Of a stretch of DNA of 64,000 bases, positions 1 through 57,223 are shown piece after piece. Position numbers and translations under genes: made by a program. The notes below the pieces were generated by a model. The model saw only the letters and a list, made by a program, of their open reading frames with translations. It was not told where the DNA came from and searched no databases. The DNA comes from Phlegmacium glaucopus. Taxonomy: Eukaryota > Basidiomycota > Agaricomycetes > Agaricales > Cortinariaceae. The stretch lies in assembly GCA_015039465.1 (NCBI GenBank), contig MU130540.1, positions 328,580 through 392,579 of the forward strand. Direction: 5' to 3'. The stretch's first letter is position 1. Each line of letters starts with the position of its first letter.

Positions 1-11
1 GTGATACTTCT

Positions 12-118
12 CCGGGTTCGGGTTCGGGTTCGGGTTCGGCCACGGGTTCGGGTTCGGCCACGGGTTTGGGTTCGGCCACGGGTTCGGGTTCGGTCACGGG
101 TTCGGGTTCGGTTCGAGA
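12..118. repeat. GGGTTCG tandem repeat
   Basis: Units of GGGTTCG are interrupted by GGCCAC or GGTCAC spacers. Read on the minus strand it would encode alternating Glu-Pro and Val-Ala/Thr, so it could be the repeat part of a gene cut off by the window edge. This cannot be decided from the sequence shown. Confidence 0.8.
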
Positions 119-343
119 GGAGAACGTTGTTGGCGCGGCGGCGGGCGATGTTTGTTGTGGCGACGTGACGAACGGTTCGAGCGTCGCGTCCTTCCATTCA
201 TGTAAAAAATCTATCTTAATAATACATATTATGGTGATCAAGATTAATACTGAAGACAAATAATCGCCTCTAACTGTCTGAGTTCTTTTCGGTCCGGAGT
301 TACCGTTTTCTATGGTTAAAATTTCTTTAACTTACGGGGGTAC

Positions 344-759
344 ACAATGTAAGGCAGTATGCACTGAGACCAGGCTGAGGCTGCCTCAACAAAGACCATC
401 GGGCATGAGGAAAGGTCATGAGAGGGAACAAAGGCCAAGATGAGGTGGATGCAGGCTGAGACTCTGAAAAGGCATAGTAAGGCTGAGAAGGCTGCAGTGA
501 GGTTTGGGTAATGGTGAAGAAGTGGAGATGGTGATAAGAAACAGTAGTAGGAAGGGTGGTAGTCAGTAGTATGGGCGGTACCTAATAAGTGGGTTCTTAC
601 GTCCTGGGAAAGGCCCTCGTCTTGCGTCGTGAATATAAATAGAAAATATAAAACCAACGATAAGAGAATAAATAAATTCATGAGCTTTGAACATACAAAA
701 GGGAATCAAGCTTATAGTTGAATCAAAGGAGAAGAACAAAAAGGAGATTCAGTGACTCC
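344..759. mobile_element. Ty3/gypsy LTR fragment written as complement without reversal
   Basis: Complementing each base in place, without reversing, gives the first ~420 bp of the 569-bp LTR at 48836-49404. ACAATGTAAGG at 344 is the in-place complement of the LTR start TGTTACATTCC, and GTGGGTTCTTACGTCC near 581 is the in-place complement of CACCCAAGAATGCAGG. The match starts exactly at the LTR terminus and stops near 759. It contains no sensible reading frame of its own. An artefact of strand handling is the simplest explanation; see the findings. Confidence 0.85.
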
Positions 760-8712: not shown

Positions 8713-8738
8713 AAAAAAAAAAAAAAAAAAAAAAAAAA
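8713..8738 (+). repeat. Poly(A) run at the end of Plavaka copy A
   Basis: Twenty-six A residues stand exactly where homology between Plavaka copies A and B stops. It marks a breakpoint of unknown origin. Confidence 0.95.
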
Positions 8739-15549: not shown

Positions 15550-15859
15550 TGCTTTTAGGTGTGATATAAGTCTTTTTCTAACTCTTTCTCTGTCTAACCA
15601 ATGCATCGTGTTTATTGTTCTCTCCCACTGCTACGTAGATCTTCCTAACGCCCAGAGCTGCTGCTACGCTGTCGGATATGTTTATATACTTGTAGACTGA
15701 ACTTGTTTACCCCTCAAATTAATCAATGTGCTCTTTCCTCAGAAATACATAGCTGCTGGCTCAGGAGAACTCAACATGGCTGATCTCAAAAGACAATATT
15801 CGTTGCTCCAACCCAGCCAAGCTCAAGATGCACGATCTAGTGCTAACTTTGACTCAAAA
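15550..15859. other. 3' flank of Plavaka copy B
   Basis: No gene seen. It may hold the 3' untranslated part of the transposon before the repeat starting at 15860. Confidence 0.4.
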
Positions 15860-18925: not shown

Positions 18926-18930
18926 CAAAG

Positions 18931-25470: not shown

Positions 25471-25822
25471 TGTGGGGAAGACGAGTTGGCTACACGAGGC
25501 CATAGTTTCTGATATGTTTCTCTTTCTTTCATTCCTTATTTTTTATAATTCTTTCTTTGTTTTACTTAATTACTAAACCCGGACAATGCGTAGGTAGTTG
25601 TAGATTATGGACCAAGCGAGGTGGCCTGCGGCCTCCTTCCCCTTCCATAGCATAGACTTCGTGGCACCATTGTACTAGGTGGGCCACCATGCCACACCTT
25701 CGTAGTATAAAACTCTTAGAAATTACAGACCAATAATCATTTATTATCTTTCACTCGATATATTTCTTCTATCTAAAGTCTAAAAGACCCTATCCCCTTC
25801 GAAACTCGTAACAATCACTACA
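25471..25822 (+). mobile_element. 5' LTR of the second Ty3/gypsy lineage
   Basis: 352 bp from TGTGGGG to CACTACA. It is followed at once by TCTGGAGCCCACC, a likely primer-binding site, and then Gag. AGTATAAAAC near 25702 is a possible LTR TATA element. A diverged in-place complement of the entire LTR lies at 38888-39236. Confidence 0.75.
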
Positions 25823-31906: not shown

Positions 31907-32858
31907 CGGACTTATTGTCCGACCAGAATTGGCAACGGAAAGTCACCAGACAATTTCCCTCATTTACACCACAAAAAATTACATTAAATTAAAAAAGTGT
32001 CTGGAAGTAGTCCGGCGGAATTCCGACTGGACAATGTGGGGGAGTGTAAAGACCTCAAATAGGTGGGTCAGTGTAGAAATGGGTGAGTAGAGTGTAGAAA
32101 TAGGTATGAATGGGTGGGTGGGTGGTAGAAATAGTGTGAAATGGGTGTATGGATGGTTGAAATGGGTGTATTGGTGCTCGAAACGGGTCCTTGGTGGTTG
32201 AAACGGGTGTACTTGTCGTCGTACACGTATATTCCTCGTCGTACGTGGGTGTTCATTGTCATGGGTGTGTAGTCGTCGTTGTAGGGGGGTATTGGTCGTC
32301 GCCGGCGTGTACTCGCCGTTGTAGGGGGGTATTCGTCGTCGTGGGCGTCTATTCATTGTTGTAGGGGGGTATTCGTCGTCGTGGGCATCTATTCATCGTC
32401 GTGGGCGTGTACTCGTCATCGTAGGTGGTATTCGTCGTCATGGACGTGTACTCGTTGTCGTGGGCATCTATTTGTCATCGTGGGCGTGTACTCATCGTTG
32501 TAGGGGGGTATTTGTTGTTGTGGGCATCTATTCGTCGTCGTAGGGGGTATTTGTCGTTGTGGGTGTGTACTCGTCGTCGTAGGGGTGTATTCGTCGTTGT
32601 GGGCGTCTATTCGTCGTCGTTGGCGTGTACTCGCCGTTGTAGGTGGGTATTAGTTGTTGTACACGTGTACTCATCGACGTACACGTGTATTCGTCGTGGT
32701 ACACGTATATTTGTCGTCGTACGTGTGTACATGTTGTTGTACATGCGTTGCGTCGCTGTACACGGCGTGTGGTCGTTGTACGGGTGTATGGGTCGTTGTA
32801 CATGACCTATTATAGTATGTTAGCAGTGAAGTGGAATAGAATGAAATAAAATAAAAAT

Positions 32859-32878
32859 CCCCCCCTCCTGAGGGGGGG
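32859..32878. repeat. C7-TCCTGA-G7 hairpin
   Basis: Perfect C7/G7 stem with AAAAAT before and TTACC after, as in the other members of the family. Confidence 0.9.
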
Positions 32879-35126
32879 TTACCATTGTCAGTCGTGATTC
32901 TTGTTGTTACGGTGGCTGTCGAAATGGGTGTTCTGGAAACGAGTGTCCTGGTGGTGGTGGTGTGAGAAACAGGGGGACGACATCAACAAACAGTAACGGG
33001 CACATCACATGTGGTCACATGATCACACCCTCGCACTGAATAAAATACACGATCTTGATGGCGATAAGTCATTGCTATCCTAACTGTATATATTGGTGAA
33101 TTAATATATTGCTAGTTTAATTTCTATAATTATATTATTTTTCTAGTAAAGTCAGGTGATTCATTTCCTAAGCTTTCAACTCAATTCTGCTCAGAATCTG
33201 CTCAGAAATAGTCAGATTCTGCTCGGAAATTGGTTGGATTCTGATCGGAAATTGGTCAGACTTGGATCTGATCAGATCTGATCAGAACTGGTCTTTCTGA
33301 GCAGATCTGGTCAGAATCTGGTCAGAAAAATTGGCTCTATTCCTGCCATTTAGGCTGGAAAATATTCTGACTGGATCAGATCAGATCTGACCAATTCTGA
33401 TCAGATCTGGTGGATCACAGCAAAGACCTCGAATAATAAGGCCCAGAAGCTAAGAAGGTCACCTAGACATAAAAATGGTGGAAATAGTTGTAGATGAAGA
33501 AGAAGACTATAATAGGACAAGTCAAACATAATAGAAAGTGCACATTTCCAATGTACATTCACTGTATCTGGAAGCAATATGTTAAAAACTAGATACATTC
33601 TTGATAGTGGTAGAACATACTATGAGAGAGACCTCTAAGCAGTAAACTTTACCACTGTGATCATACATCATACTTCTTCTGGCTCTGGCTCCATCCTTTC
33701 AACAACTGCCAATGCAGATCCTGGGGTTGGGATTCATCTTTTGGAACAACAAGGGGGTAGTGTACTTGCATGAGTGGTGTTGTGGTAGCCTGCCCATCAG
33801 CCATCTTGCTCTTCTTTAGTGGAGGGTCTTCCTGAAGTTCATCCTTCAGGATGGCAATAATTTTGTGGATTTTCTGATAGCCCATAGCAGAGCCTCCATG
33901 CTTTTGTGATGTGGTCACCTGGAGACTGGAGTACCCACAAAATGGCAGATTTCTTTGCATAGTCAAGTTCAATGGTGAAAGCATCAAACAAGGGGAAGTT
34001 TGGGTCCCCAGGAATATAGTACAAGTTGTTCTCCAGACAAGTGGAGAGGTTGTCACTGGACTTGAGCTTGACAATCTTGCACTTGACTTTCATAAATTGT
34101 AATTGTACATTATCTAGAACAGGGGAATCCCCAGTCCAAGGTGAAATGAGGTGGATCTGTGGTGTTGGATTTCATGTTGACAAGTGGCCAGGTGCTATCT
34201 GTGGTGTTTTCTATGTACCAATGAGCTAATGGTTCAAGCAACCATCCTGCCAACCCTCCTGCTTCCAGAATTCTCCAAAAAAAGTTGATATGCTGGCAAA
34301 TTATGAAGTCCTCTGCTTCACCCAGTTCCTGGAACATGTTCCTAGCAATACAGTCAGGCTTGAAGTCCACATTCCAACAAACCCACTTAAGAGGGCCTTG
34401 ATCAACCAGGTGGAGAGTAAGTATTTGATGAGATATAGAGTGGCTGGCACTTTGATTTTTACAGAGGGCAGATACAGCATCTTGCAATTCTGTGTATTTC
34501 AGGTCAAAAGTGTCCTTATGGAGCTGGGTCATTGCTGAATAGTTGAAGACTGCACTGAACACATCATGAGCAGAGTATCCAAAATGGTCAATTGCTGCAT
34601 CCATAAGGTAGTTGAGGGCATCCTCAGGTGACAGTGGCAGAGTGTCCTCTTGACTGTAATGTTCCTCAAGGAGCACACAGGCACTGGGGTAGACATCTAA
34701 TGGATCATTCAGATTTGGAGGGGAGCTTCCATAAACCTTGTGAAGTGCACCCACCAGAGAGTGGTACTCATCCTGATATTGCAACCTGGGTAGAGTGTGC
34801 TCGGACATGGGCAGAAAAGTGTAATCAATATGATGTACCCTTGCACAAGCTTGTTGTGAGTCTATAATGGCAAACTGGTGTGCAGAGGAAGCTGTTCCTT
34901 GTTCCAAGTCTGGTATTGGGAGGGATCAGGTGAAGCTGCCTGCACTGGAAAACACAGATGGTTGACCAAGAAGCTCACTGGCTCTTTCTGCTCACAAATA
35001 TCAAATAACAACCAGATAAAGACATTTGAGGAGGATATAGGATTAGGGAGTGATGCACCTGCACCCCAAGCAGCAAGTGCCTCCATGACATAGACTTTGT
35101 TCAAGCAGAAAAAGTACACCCATATA

Positions 35127-37764: not shown

Positions 37765-38428
37765 CAGTACTCCTGTTGTAAGAAAACTAGATACAAAGTC
37801 TCAGCATTTGCGTGCCAAACGACCAGCATTGTGTAAATACCTAGATACAAAGTCTAGGTAACTTGTAAGTAAAATGTAGTAAAAGAAATAGGTAGAATAT
37901 ATCTTACCTCAGTGTTTGCGTGCCAAACGACTGAGATAAATTACTGAGACAAGTCCATATTTATACTAGAAATACCGTAGTGTACTCTAAGTAGTTATCA
38001 ACGGTCTGGAATGGAAAGAAACAGATAACAAAAGAATAATAAAATGAACTGGGCAAGTGTGGCCAGGCCACATTTGTCTCAATGCCCATTGTTCCCCAAA
38101 ACAATGGAACTCGGATGCGGTTTGTAATTCTAACACCTGTCTCAACTTTAATTTATGCACCTTTGCTAGTGTTGCCGAAGTCCAGTCCAGAACCGAAGTT
38201 TGAACCTGAACGTCTGAGAACCAGACCGAAGTTCAGTCCAAGGTTCATATATTTTGCTGAACTGAATGCTGGGTTCAACTCAGCGTTCAAGTAGATCACA
38301 CTTCCACTGAACACGTTCAAACTCAGTTTGAACCGGACTCCTACTATAGCCTTCCAACCGTTACCTGGGTGACACATTCACACTCCCATCATTCTCCATT
38401 CCCTGTCATTCATGATTCTTTGGTATAT
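37765..38428. other. Repeat remnants, no gene
   Basis: Contains TTTGCGTGCCAAACGAC twice (about 37808 and 37916) next to ATACAAAGTCTAG motifs, probably LTR debris, and a GTTCA-rich stretch at about 38170-38340. Confidence 0.45.
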
Positions 38429-38817
38429 TGTTAAGCTTTAAAACAAAGGGAGTCATGTCGGAGTTACTCCGGAACGGAACCGGAACAGTAACCTGGAAAG
38501 GACATTGGCCTCAGCGTGTGTGCTGTGCTGCCCAGCTCCTAAGGTGTCCTGATTTCGGAACGGAAGAAGAAAGTAACAAGTCGGAAGCCCTCAGTGACTT
38601 AGAGGGAAAACAAGAGGAGGAAACTAAGTTGATATTCGAACTGAGGGAAAACATACAAGTTTCGAGTACTTAAATAAATAAAAGAATAGCAACCGAAATA
38701 TAAAAGATAAATATAAGTGCTGCGTTCTGCTCCCGGAAAAGGTCCTGCATTCTTGGGTGAATAATCCATGGCGGGTATGCTGACTGATGGTGGGAAGGAT
38801 GATGACAAAGAATAGTG
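38429..38817 (-). mobile_element. 3' two-thirds of a 569-bp-family LTR
   Basis: Begins TGTTAAGCTTTAAAAC and is colinear with the reverse complement of 49404 back to about 49025, where it stops at GACAAAGAATAGTG. It is in normal orientation, in contrast to the block that follows. Confidence 0.85.
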
Positions 38818-38887
38818 TCCGCATCTCCTCCACATTTCCCTTGTACCCTCCTACTGCTCCTGCAGTACTAGTTTTCTTTTCCCCTCT

Positions 38888-39236
38888 ACACCCCTTCTGC
38901 TCAGCCAATGTGTTCCGGTATCAAAGACTATACAAAGAGAAAGAAAGTAAGGAATAAAAAATAGTAAGAAAGAAACAAAAATTAATGATTTGGGCCTGTT
39001 ACGTATCCATCAACATCTAATACCTGGTTCGCTCCACCGGACGCCGGAGGAAGGGGAAGGCATCGTATCTGAAACACCGTGGTAACATGATCCACCCGGT
39101 GGTACGGTGTGGAAGCATCATATTTTGAGAATCTTTAATGTCTGGTTATTAGTAAATAATAGAAAGTGAGCTATATAAAGAAGATAGATTTCAGATTTTC
39201 TGGGATAGGGGAAGCTTTGAGCATTGTTAGTGATGT
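38888..39236. mobile_element. Mirrored LTR of the second gypsy lineage
   Basis: In-place complement of 25471-25822, both termini included (ACACCCC for TGTGGGG; GTGATGT for CACTACA), about 98% matching. Several of the differences are CpG-type transitions, so it looks like a real diverged copy rather than a duplicate of the same DNA. Confidence 0.9.
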
Positions 39237-39457
39237 GACGGAAATTTGATCCAGGTGTAACTCGTTCAAGGAACGGACAGTTTACTTCGTAGTAACCGAC
39301 ACCTGGACACCATCTTCGACGTCAAAAACATAGATCATTAATTGTCTCTTAGCGTGGACAAAGATTGGAGAATGATACCCTTATGTTTACCTCCTCGTGA
39401 CCAACTATTCCCCTTACATGGTTCCCTACCCTTTATATGGTTCCCTACCCTTTATAT

Positions 39458-39644
39458 ACAATGTAAGGTAGTATGCACTGAGGCCAGGCTGAGGCTGCCT
39501 CAACAAAGGCCATCGGGCATGAGGAAAGGTCATGAGAGGGAACAAAGGCCAAGATGAGGTGGATGCAGGCTGAGGCTCTGAAAAGGCATAGTAAGGCTGA
39601 GAAGGCTGCAGTGAGGTTTGGGTAATGGTGAAGAAGTGGTGATG
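39458..39644. mobile_element. Mirrored start of a 569-bp-family LTR
   Basis: In-place complement of about 48836-49022. It is also colinear, in the same written direction, with 344-530. It ends at a run of 25 A (39645-39669). Confidence 0.9.
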
Positions 39645-39669
39645 AAAAAAAAAAAAAAAAAAAAAAAAA
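39645..39669. repeat. Poly(A) run, 25 bases
   Basis: Lies at the broken end of the mirrored LTR. A second such junction is at 8713, and a third, shorter one at 53418. Confidence 0.95.
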
Positions 39670-39973
39670 CCTACTATCGATTTATATTTATAACACACGG
39701 ACGGTTCTGATATAAAAATATAAACAAACGTAAACTCCGGTATACAACTTTACCAACACCTCAGACGGTCTCAGGTGGTCTGTTCAGACCGCCTTATACA
39801 GGTCATTCTGAGGTGGCCTTAGACACCTGAGGCCACTTAAAATGACCTGAGGTGACCTGAAGTCACCTGGCCTGAGCTGTTTAAACCGGGTACAGTGTGA
39901 CTTTTTAGGACCTGACCTCAGGTCACTTCAGGTGACCTAAGGCCACCTCATACACCCCCTCACATGTCAGGAG
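39670..39973. mobile_element. Mirrored MITE terminus
   Basis: Read backwards without complementing from 39973, it begins GAGGACTGTACACTCCCCCAC, the family terminus seen at 57547. CCAGTGGACTCC-type arrays follow in place of GTCCGG arrays. Confidence 0.75.
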
Positions 39974-40154
39974 ACGAATTCGGTATAGAGTGGGACCAGT
40001 AAGTAGGGTTAAAGTCACAGTTTCCGTAGCCTCCTCGCACAGCGTAAACTCGTACGGAACACCCATGTTTCGCTTTCACCTTATATTAAGAACTTTGGCC
40101 TGAAGTCAAGAAACTAGTGTCGTTACCCGTTGAGCGATCAGTGTAACCATTACC
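39974..40154. other. Open frame visible only in the mirrored reading
   Basis: Read backwards without complementing from about 40148 to 39976, it gives an uninterrupted frame of roughly 57 codons, including the segments KSGFKNYIPLSLCTHKAC and SSDAFDTEIGMND. No comparable frame exists in the six normal frames. It resembles a host or transposon exon cut by the MITE. Confidence 0.5.
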
Positions 40155-41083
40155 CTCCAGAAACGACACTAGGTGGTCTAGACTAGTCTAGGCCAGTCTT
40201 ATAAAAGGTCGGGTTTACCGTCATTATCTCGGTTAAAAAGACTGGTCTAAGACTGGTCTAGACGAGTCTTTCTGGTCAAGACTAGTCTAGACTAGTCTAG
40301 GTTCAGACTGGTTAAAGGCTAGTCTTAGGTTGGTTAAAGGCTCGTCTTAGACTGATAAAGACTCGTCTAAGACTCGTCTTAACTCAACGTTCGAATCCTT
40401 TACTTAGTGGACTGAAATGATCTTTTTATTATATTAATATCTTTAATTTGATCGTTATATAATTAAGTGGTTATATATGTCCATCCTATCGTTCCTGAAT
40501 AGCGGTAGTTCTAGTACATAAAACAAGTCACGCTCCCCACACTAGTGCACTGGTGTACACTACACGGGTAATGACAAACAACTACAGCAGGGGGACAAAG
40601 AGTGTGGTGGTGGTGATGGTGGTGGTGGTGGTGTGGGCAAAAGTTCTTGTGGGTAAAACTGTCGGTGGTATTGTTGTTCTTAGTGTTGGCTGTTGCCATT
40701 GGGGGGGAGTCCTTCCCCCCTATAAATAAAATAAAGTAAGATAAGGTGAAGTGACGATTGTATGATATTATCCAGTACATGTTGTAGTTACTGTTGTTAC
40801 ATGTTGTACATGTTGTACATGTTGCTGGGTATGTGGGCATGTTGCTGGTGTGTGCGGCACATGTTGCTGCGTTGCGTACATGTTGTTGTTTGCTGCGCTT
40901 GTTGTTGTGCACGTGTGCATGCTGCTGCTTATATGCACATGGTGCTGCTTATGTGCACATGCAGCTACTCATGTGCACATGTTGCTGATTATGGGTGGAT
41001 GTTGCCGCTCATGTGCGGCTGCTGCTGCTTATCTGCCGGTGTTGCTGCTTATGGGGGGATGCTGCTGCTCATGTACGAAGAAA
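40155..41083. mobile_element. Mirrored end of a large GATCAG-type element
   Basis: Read backwards, it matches about 32560-33427 in order: GTCGTCGT low complexity, a C/G hairpin (written G7-AGTCCTT-C6 at 40701-40720), the AT-rich GTGAATTAATATATTGC part, the GATCAG array and the terminus GGTGGATCACAGCAAAGACCTC. Confidence 0.9.
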
Positions 41084-41754
41084 GGCAACTCTAAGTCTCT
41101 AAATGATACAACTCAAATTTGGACTTAAGTTTGTTTAATATAGCCCTTTCTCAATAAGGAAAGAAGCTATTAATAGATTTTAAATAGATCTAGGGTCCTA
41201 AGAAGATCCTCTATCATTCTATTCAATATTTCCTCTTTGGGAAATTTTTCCCATAGGCCAAATCCCATTTAATGCAGTACTTTTCTGTCCCCCACCAGAT
41301 CTGAGTAGTTCTGACCAATTCTGATCAGATCTGATCAGAATTGCAATACTTATAAGTCAATTCCTACTAACTCATATTTTTTCTAAAATTTCTAACATAT
41401 TAATTTAAATTTAAATTTAAATGGATTAATTTAAATTTAAATTTAAATGGATTAATTATACATTTTGAGGTGGGATTAGTTACTAGTACATTAGAATAAC
41501 AAAATACATTAGTTGATATCAGAGAAATGAAATCAAAATACTAAGTGGTCAAAATGAGTGGGTAGAGTGGGTGTGAAATAAATGGGCAGGTGGTAGAAAG
41601 GGGGGGTGATGGGTGCAAAACGGGGGTGATGGGTGTAAAAAAGGGGTGATGGGTGCAAAACGGGGGTGATGGGCGTAAAACAGGTGTATGTGGGTGGTTG
41701 AAACGGACGACGACGAGGAGGCATCGCCGTCATCGTTCATTGTCCGTCATCATT

Positions 41755-41925
41755 GTCGTTGTCCGTCATCGTTGTCGTTGTCCGTTGCCGTCATTGTTGT
41801 CCGTTGCCGTCATTGTTGTCCATTGCCGTCATTGTTGTCCGTTGCCGTCATTGTTGTCCGTTGCCGTCATTGTTGTCCGTTGCCGTCATTGTTGTCCGTT
41901 GTTGTCATTGTCATCCGTTGTTGTC
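41755..41925. repeat. 19-bp tandem array GTTGTCCGTTGCCGTCATT
   Basis: About seven units inside the large element, degrading at both edges into GTCGTC-like low complexity. Confidence 0.9.
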
Positions 41926-42479
41926 ATTGTCATTGTTGTTTGTCGTCATCATTGTCGTTTGTCGTTGTTGTTGTGGCTTGTGGTTTGTCATCGTTCGAAA
42001 ACTAATTAAAAAAACCCCCCTGGTGAAAGGGGGGGTGGTGATGGTGTGTTGATGTTGAGGCATGGTAGTAGTGGGGATCTGGTGGTAATTAGTAAGGTAG
42101 AATTAAAAATAAAATAAAAACAAACAAAAACCCCCTCGAGGGGGGGGGGTAGCCGTCACCACCATCATCCGTCGTGTTGTACATCGTTGTAAGCCGGTGG
42201 GTGTCGTTTGTCGTCGTCACATTGGTCGTTCGTCGTGATACAGGTCGTGTGTTGTTGTTGTATGTGTGTACGTGTCGTGTGTCGTCGTCGTGCATGTCGT
42301 ACGTCGTACATGGCCTAATACAACATGTTAGTAGTCAATTAACATAAAATGAAGTAAAAAAATACCCCCCCTGGTGAGGGGGGGTTACCGTTGCACGTCG
42401 TCATCGTTGTAGTGTCGTACATTGTTGTGGTGGTGTCGTACGTTGTTGTTGTTGCTCGCTATCGTTGTCGTTGATACAC

Positions 42480-43690
42480 TGTCAGTACGCTAGGTGCTGT
42501 ACTAACTGAGGTGTGATGCGGCTCGGGGCTTCGGTGGCCTAAACACTGAGTCAAGTGTATGCAGAAAGGTTCCAACTAAGGTAGGGCAACAGGATATGAG
42601 ACGAGCGAAATGAGGAGCGATGTAATGACGAAAGGGCGACGAAGTAATGAAGTGGCGACGCAGTGACAAAGGGGAGACGCAGTGATGAGGGGGAGACGCA
42701 GTGACAAAGGGGAGACGCAGTGACAAAGGGGAGACGCAGTGATGAAGGGGAGACGCAGTGACAAAGGGGCGACGCAGTGACAAAGGGGCGACGCAGTGAC
42801 AAAATATAGTCGCTGTATGTGCGACTCGCAGTAAAACACAAATGAAATGAAGGTGAACAACGAGAGAGACGATGACAAGACTTAATTCTATACTCTGGGG
42901 AGAGAGGCGAATACTTTCTTATTGTCCTTTGTAACTAAATTACAGGAGGTTTTTATAGTAGGTAGAGGAGATCACATGGCTAAGTTGCACATGTGTATCT
43001 ATAAAACAAATCAAAACGATGAAACAGGAGTCCAAGAGGGACTAGGCAAAATGGGGAGACAAAACATCAGGGATAGTGGGCAATAAATGAAAGAGGACCG
43101 GTCGTCGCTCCGAGGGCTGGCAGAAGACATGTGGTATAGAGAGGCGATCAAGGAGCGATGATAGATGTATCAAAAATAAAGGAAACAAAGTGCTTGAGGT
43201 AACCGAAGAGAAATAAAAGAATATAAATGATCAGCGACCCAAAATACCCAATGGTGTTAAGGAACTTCTCGATCCGGTGATTGTCGCTGGATAGGGGCGA
43301 CTGGTAGGGTAGCAACGACGATTCGACACAGAACGATTCGGTGTAGCGTAAGGGGACGTCGGTCTGGGCAGTGGACATGCCTACGACTCTTAGACGAGTG
43401 AGCATTACCAAATATGGAAAAAGCATGACTATACACGTGACTGCTGGTGAAAGGGAGTGAAAGGGAGGCAGAACGCCTAATGTCGTCCGGGTACTGCCGG
43501 AAAAGGGGGCGATCGTACGAGCGAAATATAGCCAAGGCATTTAGGAAGCTTCTGGGGCAGTAGAGGAGACGACCGAATAGCCAGAGACTTATCTATGCAA
43601 TAAAACAGCAAATAGTTGGTGTAAGAGGCGACGTAGAGCGACGTCGCTGCCAAAAATGCGAAAAAGGAAGGCAGGGAACCAGCATGTTCA
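42480..43690 (-). mobile_element. Possible LTR inserted in the large element
   Basis: A block of different base composition that lacks the flanking hairpin and low-complexity texture. The minus strand has TATAAAAACC near 42955 and then CAG-rich leader-like sequence. Termini were not located, so this is tentative. Confidence 0.35.
42625..42802. repeat. 20-21-bp tandem array GACAAAGGGGAGACGCAGTG
   Basis: Nine or so units alternating GACAAAGGGG and GATGAAGGGG. Both strands are open across it for that reason only. Confidence 0.95.
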
Positions 43691-47416: not shown

Positions 47417-48835
47417 AGCTCACCTTTCTACATTTTGGATCAATGTTCTCAATATTTTCTCTAGATCCAACATCATGAAATCGTTGTTTGGCAAAAAGAT
47501 CTTGATATCCATGTCTGGGAGGTATTGGCTCCCAGACGGATGATAATGTATTTAGTGCTGAGGTTGGCAAGAGGGCCAGGCGAGGTGATGATGGAGAACT
47601 CAACACCGTGATATGAGAATTTGTTGGTGCTGAGATGGCGAGAGGAGCTGGGTGAGCAGGCAGGCGAATGACGAGCCTAGAAATCAATGGTTGTGAAATG
47701 GGCTCAGTTGGGGGCTGCTGAGCATTGGTGGTCTTCAGCCTGTCTTCCTTGTTTTTTGCTCGTGTAAGAGCCGCTTTTTGAGACTTGTTCTTCTTTGACT
47801 GTTGTATGTAGTGGTCAAACCGATGGTTGAGATCTTCTATAAGAGTAAAAAGGGCATCACCATCACTTTGTAAATACTTCCAGGTCAGCAGGATGGTATC
47901 CAGGGATTGATGAGCCTGTAAAAGATGAAAGTGATCAAGGATGAAATCTAAGGATGTGCCAGCCCGCAATACGTCATGTGGCAAATGGCAAGCAGCGACA
48001 TCAGTCTTTTGGGCCCAACGTGTGATGGCAAAATTATTAAGCCACTGGAGTGCATTACTACAGAGAGACTTGGTGAGAACTGGCAGGAGAGCAACAGTGG
48101 GTGTATGATCTTTTGGCAATATTGTAGTGGTAGTAGTGGTGGTTATTGTGAGAGTGAGATTCTTGTCAAACTTGACACAGCTGCTGCATGGATAGGGTTG
48201 GCCAGCTTCGAGACAGCCAACACTTGACATGGGACCAGGGTTACTCAAACATATATTGGTACTCACAACAAGGCACCTAGCTGAGGTGGGACAAGTGAGA
48301 AGCTTCACAAGGTCAGTGTCAAGTCCATCCAGATGTTTTTGGAGCTGAGGGATTGGTGCAGTGTTTGGAATATCCAAAGCTCTGGCAGCATCCAGTATGT
48401 TGGATTCCACAAATGTCCATGCCTGAGCAGCGTTCTCAAGGTCACGTCCCACATGCCCATTTTTCTGAACAAGATTGCACAGGGTGCTAGGAAGGCCAAT
48501 ATTGATGACATCTGTGATGTTTCAAACATTCATACCCATCCCAAATGCAATTGAGGCTACAATGGTTGTTGTTTGCTCGCAATTTGCAAAGAGTTCATGC
48601 GTCCAAGCATTGTATGATGGTGATGTTATTGATGTCCAGAGCCGTACATTGTCAAGTCGTGTGACGCCAGGGGGGTATTGCCTCCATCCATATAATGCAA
48701 CTCGGAAACAAAGGTCGAGGGTGTGACAATAAATGATGGCCTTGACACCACACTTGAAGGCCCATGCAATATCTGGGAATTGGCACCCAGAGAGCTTGTG
48801 TGCGAGTCCTCAAATAATCATGCGAACATTGGGGC

Positions 48836-49404
48836 TGTTACATTCCGTTATATGTTACTCCGGTCCGGCTCCGTCGGAGCTGTTTCCGGTAGTCCATACT
48901 CCGTACAGTGCCTTCCCTTATATCCCGAACTACTCTTCCTATGTTCAACTCCGAGACTTCTCCGTGTCATCCCGGTTCCTCCGTCTATACTCCAAACCCG
49001 TTATCACTTCTTCGCCACTACCACTATTCTTTGTCATCATCTTTCCCATCATCAGTCAGCATACCCGCCATGGATTATTCACCCAAGAATGCAGAACCTT
49101 TCCGGGAGCAGAACGCAGCACTTATATTTATCTTTTATATTTCGGTTGCTATTCCTTTATTTATTTAAGTACTCGAAACTTGTATGTTTTCCCTCAGTTC
49201 GAATATCAACTTTGTTTCCTCCTCTTGTTCGTCCTCTAAGTCACTGAGGTCTTCCGTCTTATTACTTCTTCTTCCGTTCCGAAATCAGGACACCTTAGGA
49301 GCTGGGCGGCACAGCACACACGCTGAGGCCAACGTCCTTTCCGTTACTGTTCCGGTTCCGTTCCGGAGTAACTCCGACGTGACTCCCTTGTTTTAAACTT
49401 AACA
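48836..49404 (+). mobile_element. 5' LTR, 569 bp
   Basis: TGTTACATTCC ... TTAAACTTAACA with TG...CA ends. The Gag ATG follows only 27 bp after it, so the primer-binding site must lie in GTATATTCGAACTGCTC, or priming is unusual. Confidence 0.95.
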
Positions 49405-49431
49405 GTATATTCGAACTGCTCACCCACTCCT

Positions 49432-50547
49432 ATGCAAACTCGTTCTAAAACTTCCAAAACACAATTACCGATACAAGAAATTATGTCCCACGAAAACACT
49501 CCCATTCCCGATGTAGTCGAAGAGGCTAGTCATATTGATGAACCTCGGAGTACTACGGACGAAGTTGAGTCTCCAACTATTCATATCAATCAACTCGTTT
49601 CCGCTTTAAATTCCCTCGGGAAATCTTCAGCCAAGTCCGATTCGGCTGGCAGACTTAGAGAGCCCGAACCCTTCACGGGTAAGGATCCTAAGAAACTAAA
49701 AGCTTTTCTTTTCCAGTGCAAGCTCTATTTCCGGAGCTCTTCCGACACATTCCGAGATGACTCCAAGCGAGTAACTTTTGCTCTGTCCTATCTCCGGGAC
49801 GTTGCTCAGGAATGGTTCGAACCTGGAATTTCCGGTCTCACCGACGAGCCTCCGTCTTGGCTTGAAGATTGGGATCTCTTCGTCAGTGAACTTCAGTCCA
49901 ACTTCGGTCCTTACGACGAGTCCGCCGACATAGAACACGAACTCACCAATCTCCGAATGAAGGACGGCCAACGTATCTCCGATTACTTAGTCCGGTTTAA
50001 CTCCTTGGCAGTCCGCTGTACTTGGGGCGAGCCTGCTCTTAGGTATAGGTTTTACGAAGGTTTACCTTCCCGAATCAAGGATGAAATCAGCAAAGGTGAT
50101 GGCAAGCCCCGGTCTTTAACCGCGATGCGTCAAAAAGCTCAAAACGCCGATGCTCGCTACTGGGAACGTATGCAAGAACGTTCTCGGGAATCCGCTCCGC
50201 AGCAACGCCAGAACCCTCCGAAGGGTCCTACCCCTTCTTCATCCTCCTCCGTACCCTCTTCTTCCAACCCTTCTTCCAGTTCCGGGAAACAGTCTCGGCC
50301 TTCGGATCAAAAATCCGTTAAGCCCACAGACTCCGGTAAGGTTTCATCTTCCACTCCTCCAAAACCTAATCTAGAAGGCAAGCTGGACTCGCGGGGTAGA
50401 CTTACCCAGCAAGAAAGGCAACGCCGGATAGATAATAAACTTTGTCTTTTCTGTGGCAAGCCAGGACATCGCGTTCCTGACTGTAACCTTGCCAAGGCAA
50501 GCTCCGCTAAAGGCCGAGCCTCTACCGTTTCCGATTCCGCTTCCTGA
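49432..50547 (+). CDS. gag: Gag with CCHC zinc knuckle
   Basis: 371 aa, intact. It has a polar N-terminus, a capsid-like domain at about residues 80-240 (REPEPFTGKDPKKLKAFLFQ ... WFEPGI), a Ser/Pro-rich linker, and a zinc knuckle CLFCGKPGHRVPDC with ligands C338, C341, H346 and C351. The ORF ends with TGA just before the N gap, so whether pol is separate or frameshifted cannot be seen. The ATG is the first after the LTR. Confidence 0.9.
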   Translation: MQTRSKTSKTQLPIQEIMSHENTPIPDVVEEASHIDEPRSTTDEVESPTIHINQLVSALNSLGKSSAKSDSAGRLREPEPFTGKDPKKLKAFLFQCKLYFRSSSDTFRDDSKRVTFALSYLRDVAQEWFEPGISGLTDEPPSWLEDWDLFVSELQSNFGPYDESADIEHELTNLRMKDGQRISDYLVRFNSLAVRCTWGEPALRYRFYEGLPSRIKDEISKGDGKPRSLTAMRQKAQNADARYWERMQERSRESAPQQRQNPPKGPTPSSSSSVPSSSNPSSSSGKQSRPSDQKSVKPTDSGKVSSSTPPKPNLEGKLDSRGRLTQQERQRRIDNKLCLFCGKPGHRVPDCNLAKASSAKGRASTVSDSAS

Positions 50548-50548
50548 C

Positions 50549-51526
50549 NNNNNNNNNNNNNNNNNNNNNNNNNNNNNNNNNNNNNNNNNNNNNNNNNNNN
50601 NNNNNNNNNNNNNNNNNNNNNNNNNNNNNNNNNNNNNNNNNNNNNNNNNNNNNNNNNNNNNNNNNNNNNNNNNNNNNNNNNNNNNNNNNNNNNNNNNNNN
50701 NNNNNNNNNNNNNNNNNNNNNNNNNNNNNNNNNNNNNNNNNNNNNNNNNNNNNNNNNNNNNNNNNNNNNNNNNNNNNNNNNNNNNNNNNNNNNNNNNNNN
50801 NNNNNNNNNNNNNNNNNNNNNNNNNNNNNNNNNNNNNNNNNNNNNNNNNNNNNNNNNNNNNNNNNNNNNNNNNNNNNNNNNNNNNNNNNNNNNNNNNNNN
50901 NNNNNNNNNNNNNNNNNNNNNNNNNNNNNNNNNNNNNNNNNNNNNNNNNNNNNNNNNNNNNNNNNNNNNNNNNNNNNNNNNNNNNNNNNNNNNNNNNNNN
51001 NNNNNNNNNNNNNNNNNNNNNNNNNNNNNNNNNNNNNNNNNNNNNNNNNNNNNNNNNNNNNNNNNNNNNNNNNNNNNNNNNNNNNNNNNNNNNNNNNNNN
51101 NNNNNNNNNNNNNNNNNNNNNNNNNNNNNNNNNNNNNNNNNNNNNNNNNNNNNNNNNNNNNNNNNNNNNNNNNNNNNNNNNNNNNNNNNNNNNNNNNNNN
51201 NNNNNNNNNNNNNNNNNNNNNNNNNNNNNNNNNNNNNNNNNNNNNNNNNNNNNNNNNNNNNNNNNNNNNNNNNNNNNNNNNNNNNNNNNNNNNNNNNNNN
51301 NNNNNNNNNNNNNNNNNNNNNNNNNNNNNNNNNNNNNNNNNNNNNNNNNNNNNNNNNNNNNNNNNNNNNNNNNNNNNNNNNNNNNNNNNNNNNNNNNNNN
51401 NNNNNNNNNNNNNNNNNNNNNNNNNNNNNNNNNNNNNNNNNNNNNNNNNNNNNNNNNNNNNNNNNNNNNNNNNNNNNNNNNNNNNNNNNNNNNNNNNNNN
51501 NNNNNNNNNNNNNNNNNNNNNNNNNN
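50549..51526. other. Assembly gap, 978 N
   Basis: The run of N replaces the protease and the N-terminal part of the reverse transcriptase. Frames that read through it are artefacts. Confidence 1.
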
Positions 51527-52740
51527 AATTTTCGGACGTCTTTTCCAAAGGCAAGGCTAACACTCTAGCGGACCATCGAGAGTATGACCTAAAAATCGAA
51601 ATCGATGAGTCTGCTAAGCCCCCTTTGGGTCCGATTTATCCCCTTTCCAAATCCGAGTTAGGAACGCTCCGAGAATTCATCAACAAGCACCTAAACATGG
51701 GTTTCATCCGCCCATCTAAGTCTCCTTTCGGAGCACCTGTCCTGTTTATCAAGAAGAAGGACGGGTCACTCCGGCTTTGCGTCAACTTCCGAAAGCTCAA
51801 TGCCATCACTCGGAAAGACAAGTATCCCTTACCCCTTGTTTCCGACTTACTTGATGCTCCGCGCAAATCCGGAATATTCACTAAAATCAATTTAAAGCAT
51901 GCCTACCATCTTGTCCGGACCGCTGCCGGAGACGAATGGAAGACTGCTTTTCGTACCCACTATGGCTCTTTCGAATGGCTCGTCATGCCGTTCGGACTTA
52001 CCAATGCCCCTGGCGGTTTTCAATGCTTCCTTAACACCATTTTTGCTGACCTTTTAGATGTGTTCGTAATCATCTATCTGGATGACATCCTCATTTTCTC
52101 CATCAACAAAAAAGATCACATCAAACATGTCTCCGAAGTCCTCCGGCGGCTCCGAGATAATAATCTTTTCGCCAATGGTAAGAAATGTGTTTTCCACTCC
52201 GATTCCGTCGAGTACCTGGGTCACATGATCGGTCCTGATGGCCTTTCTATGGATCCGGCGAAAGTCCAAGTCATTCAAGACTGGCCGGAACCTCGGAAAG
52301 TCAAAGATGTCCAATCCTTCCTTGGTTTTGCTAATTTTTACAGACGTTTCATCCACAACTATTCCGATATTGTGGTTCCGTTGACCCGTCTCACCCGGAA
52401 AAATATTCCGTGGGTTTTTGATGACAGTTGTCGCCTTGCTTTTAAGACTCTCAAGGAGGCTTTTATTTCCACTCCGGTGTTAACACACTGGAAGCCTAAC
52501 TGTCCTATCATTGTGGAAACTGACGCATCCGACTACGCTTTAGCAGCTATCCTTTCCATCCGTGATTCCGATGGAGAAATCCATCCCGTCGCGTATCGTT
52601 CTCGTACCTTTTCGGGTGCAGAATTGAATTACGACGTTCACGATAAGGAACTCCTTGCCATTTTCGAAGCTTTCAAAGCTTGGCGTCACTACCTTGAAGG
52701 TGCTAGTTTCCCAATTGATGTGGTTACTTCATATAGATAA
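51527..52740 (+). pseudogene. pol: Pol: reverse transcriptase and start of RNase H
   Basis: Open from the gap edge to TAA 52738-52740. RT motifs in order: RPSKSPFGAPVLFIKKKDG; motif A region FTKINLKHAYHLVR (about 51885-51920); LVMPFGLTNAP; YLDD in IIYLDDILIF (about 52075); and SFLGFANFYRRF. RNase H begins with VETDASDYALAAIL and YDVHDKELLAIFEAF. In motif A the catalytic Asp (normally KIDL) is Asn (AAT), so this copy should be inactive; GAT to AAT here is a CpG transition on the opposite strand. After HYLEGASFPIDVVT the sequence becomes foreign. Confidence 0.9.
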
Positions 52741-53433
52741 AAACCTGTAATAGATAAAAATTTATAGAGTTTACATATTTTATGGAGGGTCCCAAACATT
52801 TATCAGTCTTTTAACCTAAGAAAGACAGGGGGGGGAGTAAACGTTGGATCATGTCGAGTGACAGAATCTGTAACTCGTTCTTGTGAACAGAAACTCATCA
52901 CCTGAACTTTTATTTAGTCAAAGAGTCTCACCAAACTGAACAACGTTATTAACAACTTAACCACATTTTCAACAACAACACAATTTCAGTATCGTCTTCG
53001 TTCTCCCGAAGTTAACACATACGACTTAACACAATTTCAGTATCGTCTTCCGAATCTCAGAAGATCACATACGTTATACACAACTTCAACATTGTTTCAG
53101 AACCTGAACACACATGTGTTTAACATTTAGTTAGTCTTTTCAGAATCCTTAAGAACACTGACTGGGCAACCACGTTCGGTATTTAACGTTTTGGTGAATT
53201 TTTCAAACTAGTAGGAAGTTAACTAGGTTTAATAACAACAATAACACACATGATCAACTTCATTTTAAGTTTTCAGAACCTTTCCAATATGAAAGATCTT
53301 TTGGGTTGAACGTAATAATTCTAACATATTTCATAACTAACTCAATAACAAAACTCATCTCTAAAAATATTAGAACTTTTATGTGGAAAAGAGTTGTTGG
53401 AGACACGTCAATGTAGTAAAAAAAAAAAAAAAA
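52735..53433. other. Foreign AT-rich block inside pol, ending in poly(A)
   Basis: It replaces the RNase H end and the integrase N-terminus. It has a 27-bp direct repeat, ACTTAACACAATTTCAG plus flank, near 52970 and 53027, a run of eight G at about 52831, and 16 A at 53418-53433. No coding frame. Identity unknown; it might be another mirrored block, but no partner in the window proves it. Confidence 0.6.
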
Positions 53434-53503
53434 GCACTTTGCCAGATGGATGCTGATTCTGGCGTCACTTTGGAAGCCTCAGGCCTTCCACAAGTTACTT
53501 TTC

Positions 53504-54517
53504 ACAAAACAATCCATTTTCATCCCCACATACAACACCATCACTTCCGCTCAACTTGCTGAACTATTTGTCATCCACGTGTTTTCCAAGCACGGTGTTC
53601 CGTCCCATGTAACCTCCGATCGCGGTTCCGAGTTTGTATCTCACTTCTTCAGATCCCTCGGAAAAGCCCTCGACATGAAGTTGCACTTCACCTCCGGATA
53701 CCACCCGGAAGGTGACGGACAAACGGAACGCGTCAACCAAACCTTGGAACAATACATCCGCATCTACTGCAACTATCAGCAAGACAACTGGAGTTCACTT
53801 CTCCCCTTAGCGGAATTCTCCTACAACAATACTCCGAGTGCCACTACCGGTGTATCTCCGTTCTTTGCCAACAAAGGCTACGATCCGGCTATCACTATCC
53901 ATCTGGAGTACAATCTCATCTCCTCCCGTGCTCACAAGTATGTTACAGACCTTAACGAACTCCACGAGGAACTCCGAAAAGCTATCCTTACTTCCCAGGA
54001 ACAATACCAACGTTCCGCGGACAAGCGTCGGATTCCTCCTCCGGACTTCAAGGTTGGAGATCGAGCCTTTGTCAGAGCACAATTCTTCCGTACGACCAGA
54101 CCTTCAAAGAAACTCTCCGAGAAGTATCTGGGTCCATATGAGATTATAGCTCAGGCAGGTCCTTTGTCCTGGACCCTCCGTCTTCCCGACAACTTGCGTG
54201 CCGTCCATCCCATCTTCCATGTTTCCATGCTAGAGCCCTCCATTCCAAACACTATTCCGGAACGCATCCAACCTCTGCCTCCTCCGGTCGTCATTGACGG
54301 AGAACAGGAATTCGAGGTCTCCGAAATTTTGGACTCTAAATTGGACAACAGGCGGCGCGTATGCAAACTTCTGTACCTAGTCAAGTGGTCTGGCTATGAA
54401 GGTACCAATGAAGAAACTTCCTGGTTACCAGCTAATGAACTAGGACACGCGTCCGAACTTGTTGCTGATTTCCACCAGAGCTATCCGACTAAACCCGGAC
54501 CTCTTCCGCTCTTTTGA
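53504..54517 (+). pseudogene. int: Integrase core and chromodomain
   Basis: DDE integrase of a chromovirus. The core has VTSDRGSEFVSHFF (second catalytic Asp) and GYHPEGDGQTERVNQTLEQ (catalytic Glu in the usual place), then NNTPSATTGVSPFFANKG. The GPY-like motif is YLGPYEIIAQAG, and the C-terminal chromodomain is KLLYLVKWSGYEGTNEETSW, which in this group targets insertion to marked chromatin. The upstream third, with the zinc-binding domain and first catalytic Asp, is lost to the block ending at 53433. Stop TGA at 54515-54517. Confidence 0.9.
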
Positions 54518-54686
54518 TTCCTTTGCCGTCTCTTTCCTTGCTTTTTCCGTTCCTTTCCATGTCTTTTCTGTTCTACTCCTTTCCGTTATCTTACTCTTCT
54601 GTTTCACAAAACAAAGTTCAAGAAAACAATTTTTATAAACAAAACAAAAAAAAAAAATAACAAGAAAAAAATATATACAATTATTT
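54518..54686. other. 3' non-coding stretch of the retroelement
   Basis: T/C-rich, then A-rich sequence between the sense pol stop and the antisense ORF stop. It may carry convergent 3' ends. Confidence 0.5.
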
Positions 54687-55712
54687 CTACTCTATTGATT
54701 TTTCTACTTCTTCTATCCTCTCTTCCTCCGCTCCTTCCGCCCTCTCCGTCTCCGCTTCCAATCCTCCTTCCACCTCCGACTCATCCTCGTCATCCGACTC
54801 CTCTTTTTCCGTCTCCTCTTGGAACTCCGTTTCCACCCCCTTCTCCGCTTTTGTCGCATCCCTCTGTTTTATCTCCTCTTCTCTCCTTGCTTCATCCCGT
54901 CTATCCTTCTCTATTTCCCATTTCTCCCTTTCTATCTCCCGCCTCATCCGTACTTCCATCGCATACTTGATCCCCTCCTGCGTCTCCACCATCTTCCTCA
55001 ACAACCCTCCGATCATCTCCAACCCCTCTAACAGCAACTCCATCCCATCTACCTCTGGCGCTATCTCCTTCGCTTTTCCCTTGTCCTTTTTTCCGCTCCG
55101 CTCCTCCGTCCGTTCCTTCGTCTTCCGTTTCCCTCCAACCAAGCTGCAGGCGATCTTGCGTTGGTAGCAGCGCCAGCACCCTGGCCCGCTGCTCTTTTCG
55201 TAGCACACCTCGTGTGCGTCGTCACACCGGCTGCACGCCGGGTTCTTCTTTGTTTTGGTCTGATAGACCTCCTATGTGTTTTCTGTTAGTTTTATGCCAT
55301 TTCTACTTTTTGAACCACTTACTTTCTTGTTTGTTTTTCTTTTCTTCGGGGCACTTGGCCCCGGCTCCATTCTGTTTCCTTCTTCTTCTTCTTCATCGTC
55401 GTCGTCGTCAACCGCGATTGCCTCCGCCTTTCTCTTCCTCTGCTCCTCCTCCTGCTGCCTCTGTTGCAACTCTTCATTCTTCCTCTTCTCCACCTCTACT
55501 CTCCATTTCTCCGCCTCTACCCTCTGTCTCTCCGCTTCTACCCTCTGTCTCTCCTCCTCCTCCTCCTCCAGCCTCCAAGCCTCCTCAATCTCGGCTTCTT
55601 CCCGCTTCTCCTCCTGCTCCTGTTCTTTCCGTCAACGTTCCCGTGCTTCTTCAAGCCAAGCTCGTTGCGAAGCAGGAGGCAGGGAGGGGCCAGCTTTGTT
55701 GTTGGAGTTCAT
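54687..55712 (-). pseudogene. Antisense retroelement ORF: Zn(II)2Cys6 zinc cluster plus coiled coil
   Basis: ATG at 55712, exon 1 to 55323, a 51-bp GT-AG intron (GTAAGT ... ACATAG, 55322-55272), exon 2 from 55271 to the stop at 54687; 324 codons before the stop. Exon 1 is a Glu/Arg-rich coiled coil followed by poly-Asp/Glu and a basic KKRK patch. Exon 2 has CX2CX6CX8CX2CX6C (C143, C146, C153, C162, C165, C172), the exact spacing of fungal GAL4-type zinc clusters, then a Met/Leu-rich and charged coiled coil and an acidic tail. This suggests a DNA-binding regulator. TGA at 55632-55634 in exon 1 follows CGT and precedes CGG, so it fits a CGA origin. It is encoded opposite to gag-pol between integrase and 3' LTR. 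Confidence 0.75.
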
Positions 55713-55860
55713 GACATTTTGTTTTAGAGGATGGGGGTTTTGGTAGTTATCCGAAGTGAAGAATCACAATCAGTTTCCGACGGCCTTTATACCACGCCAA
55801 CCTCGCATGGACCATCACGTGGCCTCGAGGGTCTCGGCCTTGACAGGGAGGTACTGTTAC

Positions 55861-56429
55861 TGTTACATTCCGTTATACGTTACTCCGGTCCGGCTCCGTC
55901 GGAGCTGTTTCCGGTAGTCCGTACTCCGTACAGTGCCTTCCCTTATATCCCGAACTACTCTTCCTATGTTCAACTCCGAGACTTCTCCGTGTCATTCCGG
56001 TTCCTCCGTCTATACTCCAAACCCATTATCACTTCTTCGCCACTACCACTATTCTTTGTCATCATCTTTCCCATCATCAGTCAGCATACCCGCCATGGAT
56101 TATTCACCCAAGAATGCAGAACCTTTCCGGGAGCAGAACGCAGCACTTATATTTATCTTTTATATTTCGGTTGCTATTCCTTTTTTATTTAAGTACTCGA
56201 AACTTGTATGTTTTCCCTCAGTTCGAATATCAACTTTGTTTCCTCCTCTTGTTCGTCCTCTAAGTCACTGAGGTCTTCCGTCTTATTACTTCTTCTTCCG
56301 TTCCAAAATCAGGACACCTTAGGAGCTGGGCGGCACAGCACACACGCTGAGGCCAACGTCCTTTCCGCTTACTGTTCCGGTTCCGTTCCGGAGTAGCTCC
56401 GACGTGACTTCCTTGTTTTAAACTTAACA
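55861..56429 (+). mobile_element. 3' LTR, 569 bp
   Basis: Colinear with 48836-49404, about 98% identical. Preceded by GGGAGGTACTGT rather than a clear polypurine tract. Confidence 0.95.
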
Positions 56430-57223
56430 GTGGCATTCAGAGGAGAGGCGGATGCAGTGGTATCAACCAGCTTTAAAGTCAAATTTGTTACAAAGGGATC
56501 TGAAGTCATGCCCTGTGGAGAGGGTGGCAGTGACCAAGACTATTGCCGTATGAGAGGGAAGGCACTTGCGGAGAAGAGGGATTTGGCAGTACGCTTGTCT
56601 GAAATCCTTGCCCCAGGGAACAAGAAGATGCGCCTCGTCAATCCCTAGCAGGACAAGATTCTCCCTAAAAATTTCATTCTGAAGAACCTTGTCAATTTCA
56701 CTGGATACAAGGTGTTCCGCAGAGAGAAGGACTACAGACCACTGACACTCCTGGATCTCAGAAAACAAGTTTTGACCTTGGGAATTAGCTTCCTGTAGAA
56801 TTTCGGCGTTCAACAAGACTGCTTTCAGGCCAAGTTCAACCATCTCTTGTGCCTTTAGTGATGTATTAGCAAAGAAGAGCAGGATAATCCTGGTAGACAA
56901 TGTACATGTGCATTTCCAAGCTCAATCAATGGTGTGACCACCAGAGCGACAGGTTTTGCTGGGGGTTTTGGTAAACCATTTTGTCGAGTATGGTTGAGGT
57001 GCTGAAGAACCATAACAGCACCAAAAAACACTGCAGTTTTCCCCCAACCTGTTGATGCGATTAATAGTGTCGGAATTTGCTCAAGATTGTGTGCCCAACA
57101 CTCAACTTGAGAATCTCAAGGGCCATTGGGCCACTGGGGGATCCGTTGTTGGATAATCTCATGTATCATTGATTTTCCTTTGGAGCTGAGCCATGAAAAT
57201 GGGGCCGAGGTTGAGGTATTCAT

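What the first reader, a model, noticed from the sequence alone, without database searches (positions are those of the whole stretch)
38888..41083. A 2.2-kb block that is the complement, not the reverse complement, of known repeats
Complementing 39121-39180 in place gives exactly the 60 bases starting near 25702, in the same left-to-right order. Read backwards without complementing, 40155-41083 follows 32560-33427 in order through its low-complexity, hairpin, AT-rich, GATCAG and terminal parts. Two LTRs and a MITE end in the block obey the same rule. DNA copying, inversion or recombination cannot produce this, because strands are antiparallel. The copies are slightly diverged, with CpG-type changes, so they are real repeats shown in a wrong polarity. 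A software error that complemented a contig without reversing it is the likeliest cause. If reads confirm it, parallel-strand copying would be a wholly new process.
Basis: seen in the sequence. Interest (0 to 1): 0.95.

Follow-up and report, generated by a model that had tools for sequence, protein, structure and literature searches.

The report
Genome gap fillings written backwards by software
The strange block is real in the file but is very probably not biology: it is two pieces of gap-filling sequence that assembly software wrote letter-reversed without complementing, on either side of a 25-letter gap marker stored as A's, and the same error recurs elsewhere in this genome.

Summary
The block matches ordinary repeats only after complementing without reversing (E down to 0). 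With the window's three wrong-polarity stretches masked, the 272 kb held gives 0 complement-only matches of 100 bits or more, against 393 ordinary ones.

It is not one block. It is two pieces, about 38818-39644 and 39670-41077, each string-reversed in place on either side of exactly 25 A's (39645-39669). Reversing each piece makes both outer edges continuous with normal copies.

The A-run is an encoded gap placeholder. Genome-wide, runs of exactly 24, 25 and 26 A's number 0/1, 157/1 and 72/1 (forward/reverse strand).

Further wrong-polarity stretches lie at window 1-759, beside an N gap, and at about 52729-53499. One LTR family gave 60 wrong-polarity and 1151 normal first-look candidates (queries of unequal length). 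At C5, a 228-residue ankyrin array is read only after reversal.

Best explanation: long-read flank extension into scaffold gaps, as in PBJelly, with some extensions written reversed or complemented but not both. The class of error is close to certain; the program is inferred. Parallel-strand copying is not needed, and the placeholder speaks against it.

The parts
38424..38817 (+). Normal-polarity first part of an LTR; end of the original left contig
   Evidence: 94.7% ordinary (reverse-complement) match to 49022-49409
38818..39644 (.). Left gap extension, string-reversed in place (left edge uncertain by one base). Contains the rest of the LTR (39644 down to 39455) and the 25471-25822 repeat, both in wrong polarity
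   Evidence: Test query 38600-38818 followed by the first 250 letters of reversed 38819-39644 matches a normal LTR copy at C184:321600-322200, 395 of 406 (97%), across the join; one surplus base there puts the edge at 38817/38818. Repeat matches
39645..39669 (+). Run of exactly 25 A: gap placeholder stored as A
   Evidence: Exact A-run counts forward/reverse genome-wide: A24 0/1, A25 157/1, A26 72/1
39670..41077 (.). Right gap extension, string-reversed in place
   Evidence: Test query reversed 39670-41083 followed by 41084-42500 matches C184:230228-230775 at 88% across the join (query 1107-1609, join at 1414); the reference letters ...CTATCATCCAAGAAAGGC, read against the window, put the edge at 41077/41078
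41078..41278 (+). Start of the original right contig, normal polarity
   Evidence: 97.5% ordinary match to C184:230575-230775, the copy that continues the reversed right extension
1..759 (.). Second wrong-polarity extension, directly right of an N run (C184:326865-328579); holds a truncated LTR at 341-759
   Evidence: Complement-only LTR matches up to 689 bits; reversed 1-340 followed by 760-1100 matches C206:281626-282267 at 89% over query 3-681 of 681
52729..53499 (.). Third wrong-polarity stretch, inside a Ty3-type retroelement between its RNase H and integrase frames; contains a 16-A run at 53418-53433
   Evidence: Ordinary match to C184:325411-325183 stops at 52728 and that to 324424-324224 starts at 53500; reversed letters match elsewhere with E down to 6e-41; negative 6-mer polarity score. 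No restored junction was shown for this one
8713..8738 (+). Another 25-A placeholder (reads as 26 with a flanking A); matching sequence on both sides has normal polarity
50549..51526 (.). Unfilled assembly gap (978 N) inside the same retroelement

Best explanation
The block is an assembly artefact at a scaffold gap. Long reads anchored on the two contigs flanking the gap were used to extend each contig inward, by 827 and 1408 bases. The two extensions did not meet, so the program left a minimum gap of 25 between them. That gap was later stored as 25 A's. Each extension was inserted with one of the two operations of reverse-complementing missing, so its letters run backwards in place. Other extensions in the same genome have normal polarity, as expected if only extensions of one orientation pass through the faulty step. 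Shown: the reversal, the edges, the placeholder and the recurrence. Inferred: read-based flank extension, the orientation-dependent step, and that the program was PBJelly or like it (my own estimate for PBJelly is about 0.7).
For: Both outer edges become continuous with normal copies after plain reversal of each piece, and so does the right edge of the 1-759 stretch. Runs of exactly 25 A's: 157 forward against 1 reverse, with 0/1 for 24 and 72/1 for 26. At 29 placeholders not picked through the wrong-polarity LTR list (58 flanks, the finding's own two included), a match to the held 272 kb within 60 bases of the run was normal in 14, reversed in 5, absent in 39 and mixed in 0; without the finding's own flanks the reversed ones are 3. 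Ten stretches were fetched around wrong-polarity LTR hits (3, 7): 9 of 10 hold an N run, an A-run of 25 or more, or a contig end, and in 6 of these (C171, C147, C92, C206, C240, C243) reversed matching reaches that mark directly; in C92 it reaches both sides of an N gap and ordinary matching resumes at the next base after the piece. At C5 the reversed piece carries, near the A25 run, 96 bases 99% identical to the start of the contig that it should touch. The C5 piece encodes a 228-residue ankyrin array (Pfam Ank, E 6.8e-48) only when reversed; its longest as-is frame (226 residues) has no Pfam match at E 0.001. A homology-free 6-mer polarity score has its lowest value of the 272 kb at window 39422-40821. 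The PBJelly paper describes 25-N gaps, flank extension and overfilled gaps (PMC3504050, passages only).
Against: Wrong-polarity LTR copies are not clearly nearer to A25/A26 runs than normal ones: 3 of 31 against 2 of 30 within 1 kb, 5 against 4 within 5 kb, 8 against 6 within 10 kb (longer A-runs, N gaps and contigs above C184 were not counted). C164 shows neither an N run nor a long A-run in the 3.3 kb held. The stretch at 52729 holds 16 A's, not 25. The 6-mer score is noisy: of 11 intervals below its cut-off, 3 overlap the window's three stretches and 8 lie elsewhere, and 38819-39644 scores near zero. Of nine pieces taken as reversed, the longest frame is longer reversed in 6, shorter in 2 (one of them 157 against 70 residues) and under 60 both ways in 1. 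At C5 the 96-base identity could be a near-identical ankyrin repeat, not an untrimmed overlap; other repeats there align at 77%. The PBJelly passages seen do not say that overfilled gaps get 25 N (recalled), nor mention reversed output. Why N became A is unexplained. No reads were available.
Confidence: 0.97

Rival explanations
1. A different file-handling step (scaffolding or polishing, format conversion through a two-bit code, or database export) reversed whole small contigs, not read-based gap extensions.
For: N stored as A suggests a two-bit code somewhere (inference); the letters alone do not name the program.
Against: Polarity differs between the two flanks of single placeholders, at C13 and C15:121617. 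At C5 the reversed piece carries 96 bases 99% identical to the contig it would extend (a near-identical repeat is possible). Pieces also sit beside N runs and at a scaffold end, C147, where extensions are placed.
Confidence: 0.2
2. Real biology: a polymerase or repair process copied strands in parallel orientation, leaving complement-only copies.
For: Only that complement-only copies exist.
Against: The two pieces meet at a software-like placeholder; reversal in place restores ordinary continuity at the same site, so no extra copy has to be explained; antiparallel pairing of template and copy is established knowledge.
Confidence: 0.002
3. Ordinary inversion or inverted repeat, or chance matching of low-complexity sequence.
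For: Parts of 40155-41083 look low in complexity, and short complement hits there are probably of that kind.
Against: An inversion gives reverse-complement matches and would not need plain reversal; the LTR (689 bits) and the 25471 repeat (589 bits) match with the low-complexity filter on; the masked control gives 0 hits of 100 bits or more.
Confidence: 0.001

Closest known systems
PBJelly-type flank extension with 'overfilled' gaps (English et al. 2012, PMC3504050; passages seen)
   Same: Gaps defined as 25 or more N; reads extend both contigs inward and are incorporated when they cannot bridge; 'overfilled' gaps have extensions without identifiable overlap
   Different: The passages seen describe no reversed insertions, no storage of N as A, and do not state what is written into an overfilled gap
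Ordinary misassembly inversion (recalled)
   Same: A segment in the wrong orientation between contig edges
   Different: A misassembly inversion is a reverse complement; here the letters are only reversed

Membership tests
Gap-fill artefact by long-read flank extension (PBJelly type) | A placeholder of fixed length between two extensions | tested here: met
   A25 at 39645-39669; exact length and strand bias genome-wide
Gap-fill artefact by long-read flank extension (PBJelly type) | Inserted pieces continue the neighbouring contig once correctly oriented | tested here: met
   Left and right edges; 759/760 edge. Not shown for the 52729-53499 stretch
Gap-fill artefact by long-read flank extension (PBJelly type) | Similar pieces beside N gaps and at scaffold ends | tested here: met
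   N run left of window 1; C92 and C243 directly beside N, C162 within 0.5 kb of N; C147 up to the contig end
Gap-fill artefact by long-read flank extension (PBJelly type) | Every wrong-polarity stretch lies by a gap mark | tested here: inconclusive
   9 of 10 fetched stretches hold a mark, C164 does not in 3.3 kb; proximity test against A25/A26 weak
Gap-fill artefact by long-read flank extension (PBJelly type) | Program and version known to write reversed extensions | not testable with these tools
   No code or assembly record at hand; paper searches failed
Inverted repeat or inversion | Reverse-complement relation to the other copies | tested here: not met
   The matches in question appear only with complement or reversal alone
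Parallel-strand copying | An additional wrong-polarity copy in otherwise continuous DNA | tested here: not met
   The flanks continue into normal copies only after the pieces are reversed in place
Parallel-strand copying | Support of the deposited letters by reads | not testable with these tools
   No reads at hand

The most novel reading that the evidence does not exclude
A little-recognised class of error, gap extensions reversed without complementing and marked by forward-strand A25 runs, is present in other public assemblies made by the same pipeline, and creates false genes, broken transposons and false species-specific sequence there. Not tested here.
Probability: 0.5. Interest if true: 0.35.

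Novelty: not a real feature. Interest (0 to 1): 0.12.

Why it matters
As biology it does not matter. As data quality it does. In the 272 kb examined, about 3.8 kb of roughly 258 kb of known letters are backwards (my sum of the stretches in the parts list and of the N runs; one repeat-rich region, only what homology showed, not an estimate for the genome). One LTR family gave 60 wrong-polarity against 1151 normal first-look candidates genome-wide; the queries differed in length (419 and 610 bases) and 40 of each were scored. Ordinary homology searches do not match such stretches, so they can pass as lineage-specific DNA or broken genes. The A25 strand-bias test and a complement-only self-search are cheap detectors.

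Tried and rejected
A single reversed block from 38888 to 41083 was rejected. Whole-block reversal would not restore the left edge, because the LTR remainder lies directly left of the A-run; two separate reversals restore both edges.

Clustering of wrong-polarity LTR copies near A25/A26 runs was tested and was weak: 3 of 31 against 2 of 30 within 1 kb. Rows dropped before that count: of the 43 rows, the 12 on contigs above C184 (the A25 listing stops at C184); of the 42 rows, 10 for the same reason and two partial rows on C2. A-runs of 27 or more, which later proved to lie beside some of these LTRs (C206, C145, C240 with 27, C62 with 29), were not in the lists.

Protein-coding evidence within the window's own pieces gave nothing usable. 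Frames of 52741-53449 are short in both readings. Longest frames as-is and reversed are 129 and 159 residues for 1-759, 72 and 92 for 38819-39644, 145 and 175 for 39670-41077, 72 and under 60 for 52729-53417. One minus-strand frame runs 172 residues across the 759/760 edge after reversal, against 114 as deposited; I give this little weight.

The 6-mer polarity score is weak per locus: 11% of 500-bp windows are negative. I used it only as support.

The organism was not identified.

Full report
Observation. Aligning 38000-42500 to the window in three forms (as is, complemented, reversed) confirms the claim. Complement-only matches include 40155-41074 to 33430-32566 (87%, E reported as 0) and 38888-39236 to 25471-25822 (97%, E 1e-169), and the 60 bases 39121-39180, complemented, occur exactly at 25707. 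A self-comparison of the whole window shows the same relation for an LTR family and reveals a further wrong-polarity LTR at 341-759. In the 272 kb of scaffold held (C184:120001-392579), after masking the three wrong-polarity stretches of the window, complement-only hits of 100 bits or more number 0 (2 weaker hits, one pair), against 393 ordinary hits. So this is not chance.

Anatomy. The LTR is split. Its first part, 38424-38817, is normal; its remainder lies further right, running backwards from 39644 to 39455. A test sequence of 38600-38818 followed by reversed 38819-39644 follows a normal LTR copy across the join at 97% (395 of 406); a single surplus base there places the edge at 38817/38818. 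On the other side, reversed 39670-41083 followed by 41084 onward matches C184:230228-230775 at 88% across the join, and reading the reference letters places the edge at 41077/41078. Between the two pieces lies a run of exactly 25 A's. The block is thus two pieces, each reversed in place.

The placeholder. Runs of exactly 25 A's occur 157 times on the forward strand of the scaffolds and once on the reverse. Runs of 24 occur 0 and 1 times, and runs of 26 occur 72 and 1 times, which fits 25 plus a chance flanking A. A biological poly-A should have no preferred strand of a scaffold and no fixed length (inference). The passages seen of the PBJelly paper define a gap as 25 or more N, describe extension of flanking contigs into gaps, and describe overfilled gaps whose extensions have no identifiable overlap (PMC3504050, passages only). 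That the program leaves 25 N in that case is recalled, and why N became A is not known.

Recurrence. The LTR in normal polarity gave 1151 first-look candidates in the genome and the wrong-polarity form gave 60; 40 of each were scored, and the queries were 610 and 419 bases long. Reversed 1-340 joined to 760-1100 matches one continuous copy at C206:281626-282267 (89%, query 3-681 of 681), so the 1-759 stretch, which starts directly after an N run, is also a piece reversed in place. A third stretch, about 52729-53499, lies inside a Ty3-type element; its wrong polarity rests on reversed matches and the 6-mer score, not on a restored junction. Ten stretches were fetched around wrong-polarity LTR hits (3, 7). 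Nine hold an N run, an A-run of 25 or more, or a contig end; C164 holds none. In six (C171, C147, C92, C206, C240, C243) reversed matching reaches the mark directly. At C92 it reaches both sides of an N gap, and ordinary matching resumes at the base after the piece.

Flank by flank. At 29 placeholders not picked through the wrong-polarity LTR list (58 flanks; they include the finding's own and C5:283889, whose surroundings I had met), a match to the held 272 kb within 60 bases of the run was ordinary in 14, reversed in 5, absent in 39, and never both. Two of the five reversed flanks are the finding itself. At five placeholders near wrong-polarity LTRs (10 flanks), 4 were reversed and 6 had no match. 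Polarity can differ between the two sides of one placeholder (C13, C15:121617). This fits a fault that depends on the orientation of the extension.

Absolute polarity. At C5, right of an A25 run, the reversed letters encode a 228-residue ankyrin-repeat array (Pfam Ank, E 6.8e-48), while the longest as-is frame in the stretch, 226 residues, has no Pfam match at E 0.001. A 126-residue ankyrin frame that is visible as deposited (E 1e-23) lies at the far end of that stretch, in what I take to be the neighbouring normal contig; the reversed array lies beside the A25 run. So in-place reversal would bring the two ankyrin parts together. Near the A25 run the piece, when reversed, is 99% identical over 96 bases to the start of that contig. 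I read this as the anchor of the extension, now at the wrong end; a near-identical ankyrin repeat is the alternative, though other repeats there align at only 77%.

Against. Wrong-polarity LTR copies are not clearly nearer to A25 and A26 runs than normal ones, perhaps because N gaps, longer A-runs and contig ends also carry extensions. Of 11 intervals below the cut-off of the 6-mer score, 8 lie outside the three stretches. Of nine pieces taken as reversed, two have a longer frame as deposited, one of them 157 against 70 residues. The 16-A run at 53418 does not fit a fixed 25. No reads or assembly record were available, and the organism is not identified.

Verdict. An assembly artefact, with the class of error close to certain and the program inferred. 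It is of low interest as biology and of some use as a warning and a detection recipe.

Noticed in passing
48835-56431: A Ty3-type retroelement with gag, reverse transcriptase, integrase and chromodomain frames and LTRs 98.4% identical, interrupted by a 978-N gap and by the third wrong-polarity stretch, so its apparent frame breaks may be assembly errors.
   Followed up: partly
5574-8716 and 11730-14872: A 3.1-kb direct repeat, 97.6% identical, whose first copy carries a tnp2-type transposase frame and ends at a 25-A placeholder; a further 1.1-kb pair (15855-16982, 18926-20052) has the same identity. Could be a real duplication or an assembly duplicate.
   Followed up: no
53418-53433: A 16-A run inside the third wrong-polarity stretch; perhaps a shorter placeholder, perhaps natural.
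   Followed up: no
L025/L003 (C5:282400-289000): An ankyrin-repeat frame that seems cut by a reversed gap extension, with 96 bases of the neighbouring contig apparently duplicated in it.
   Followed up: partly
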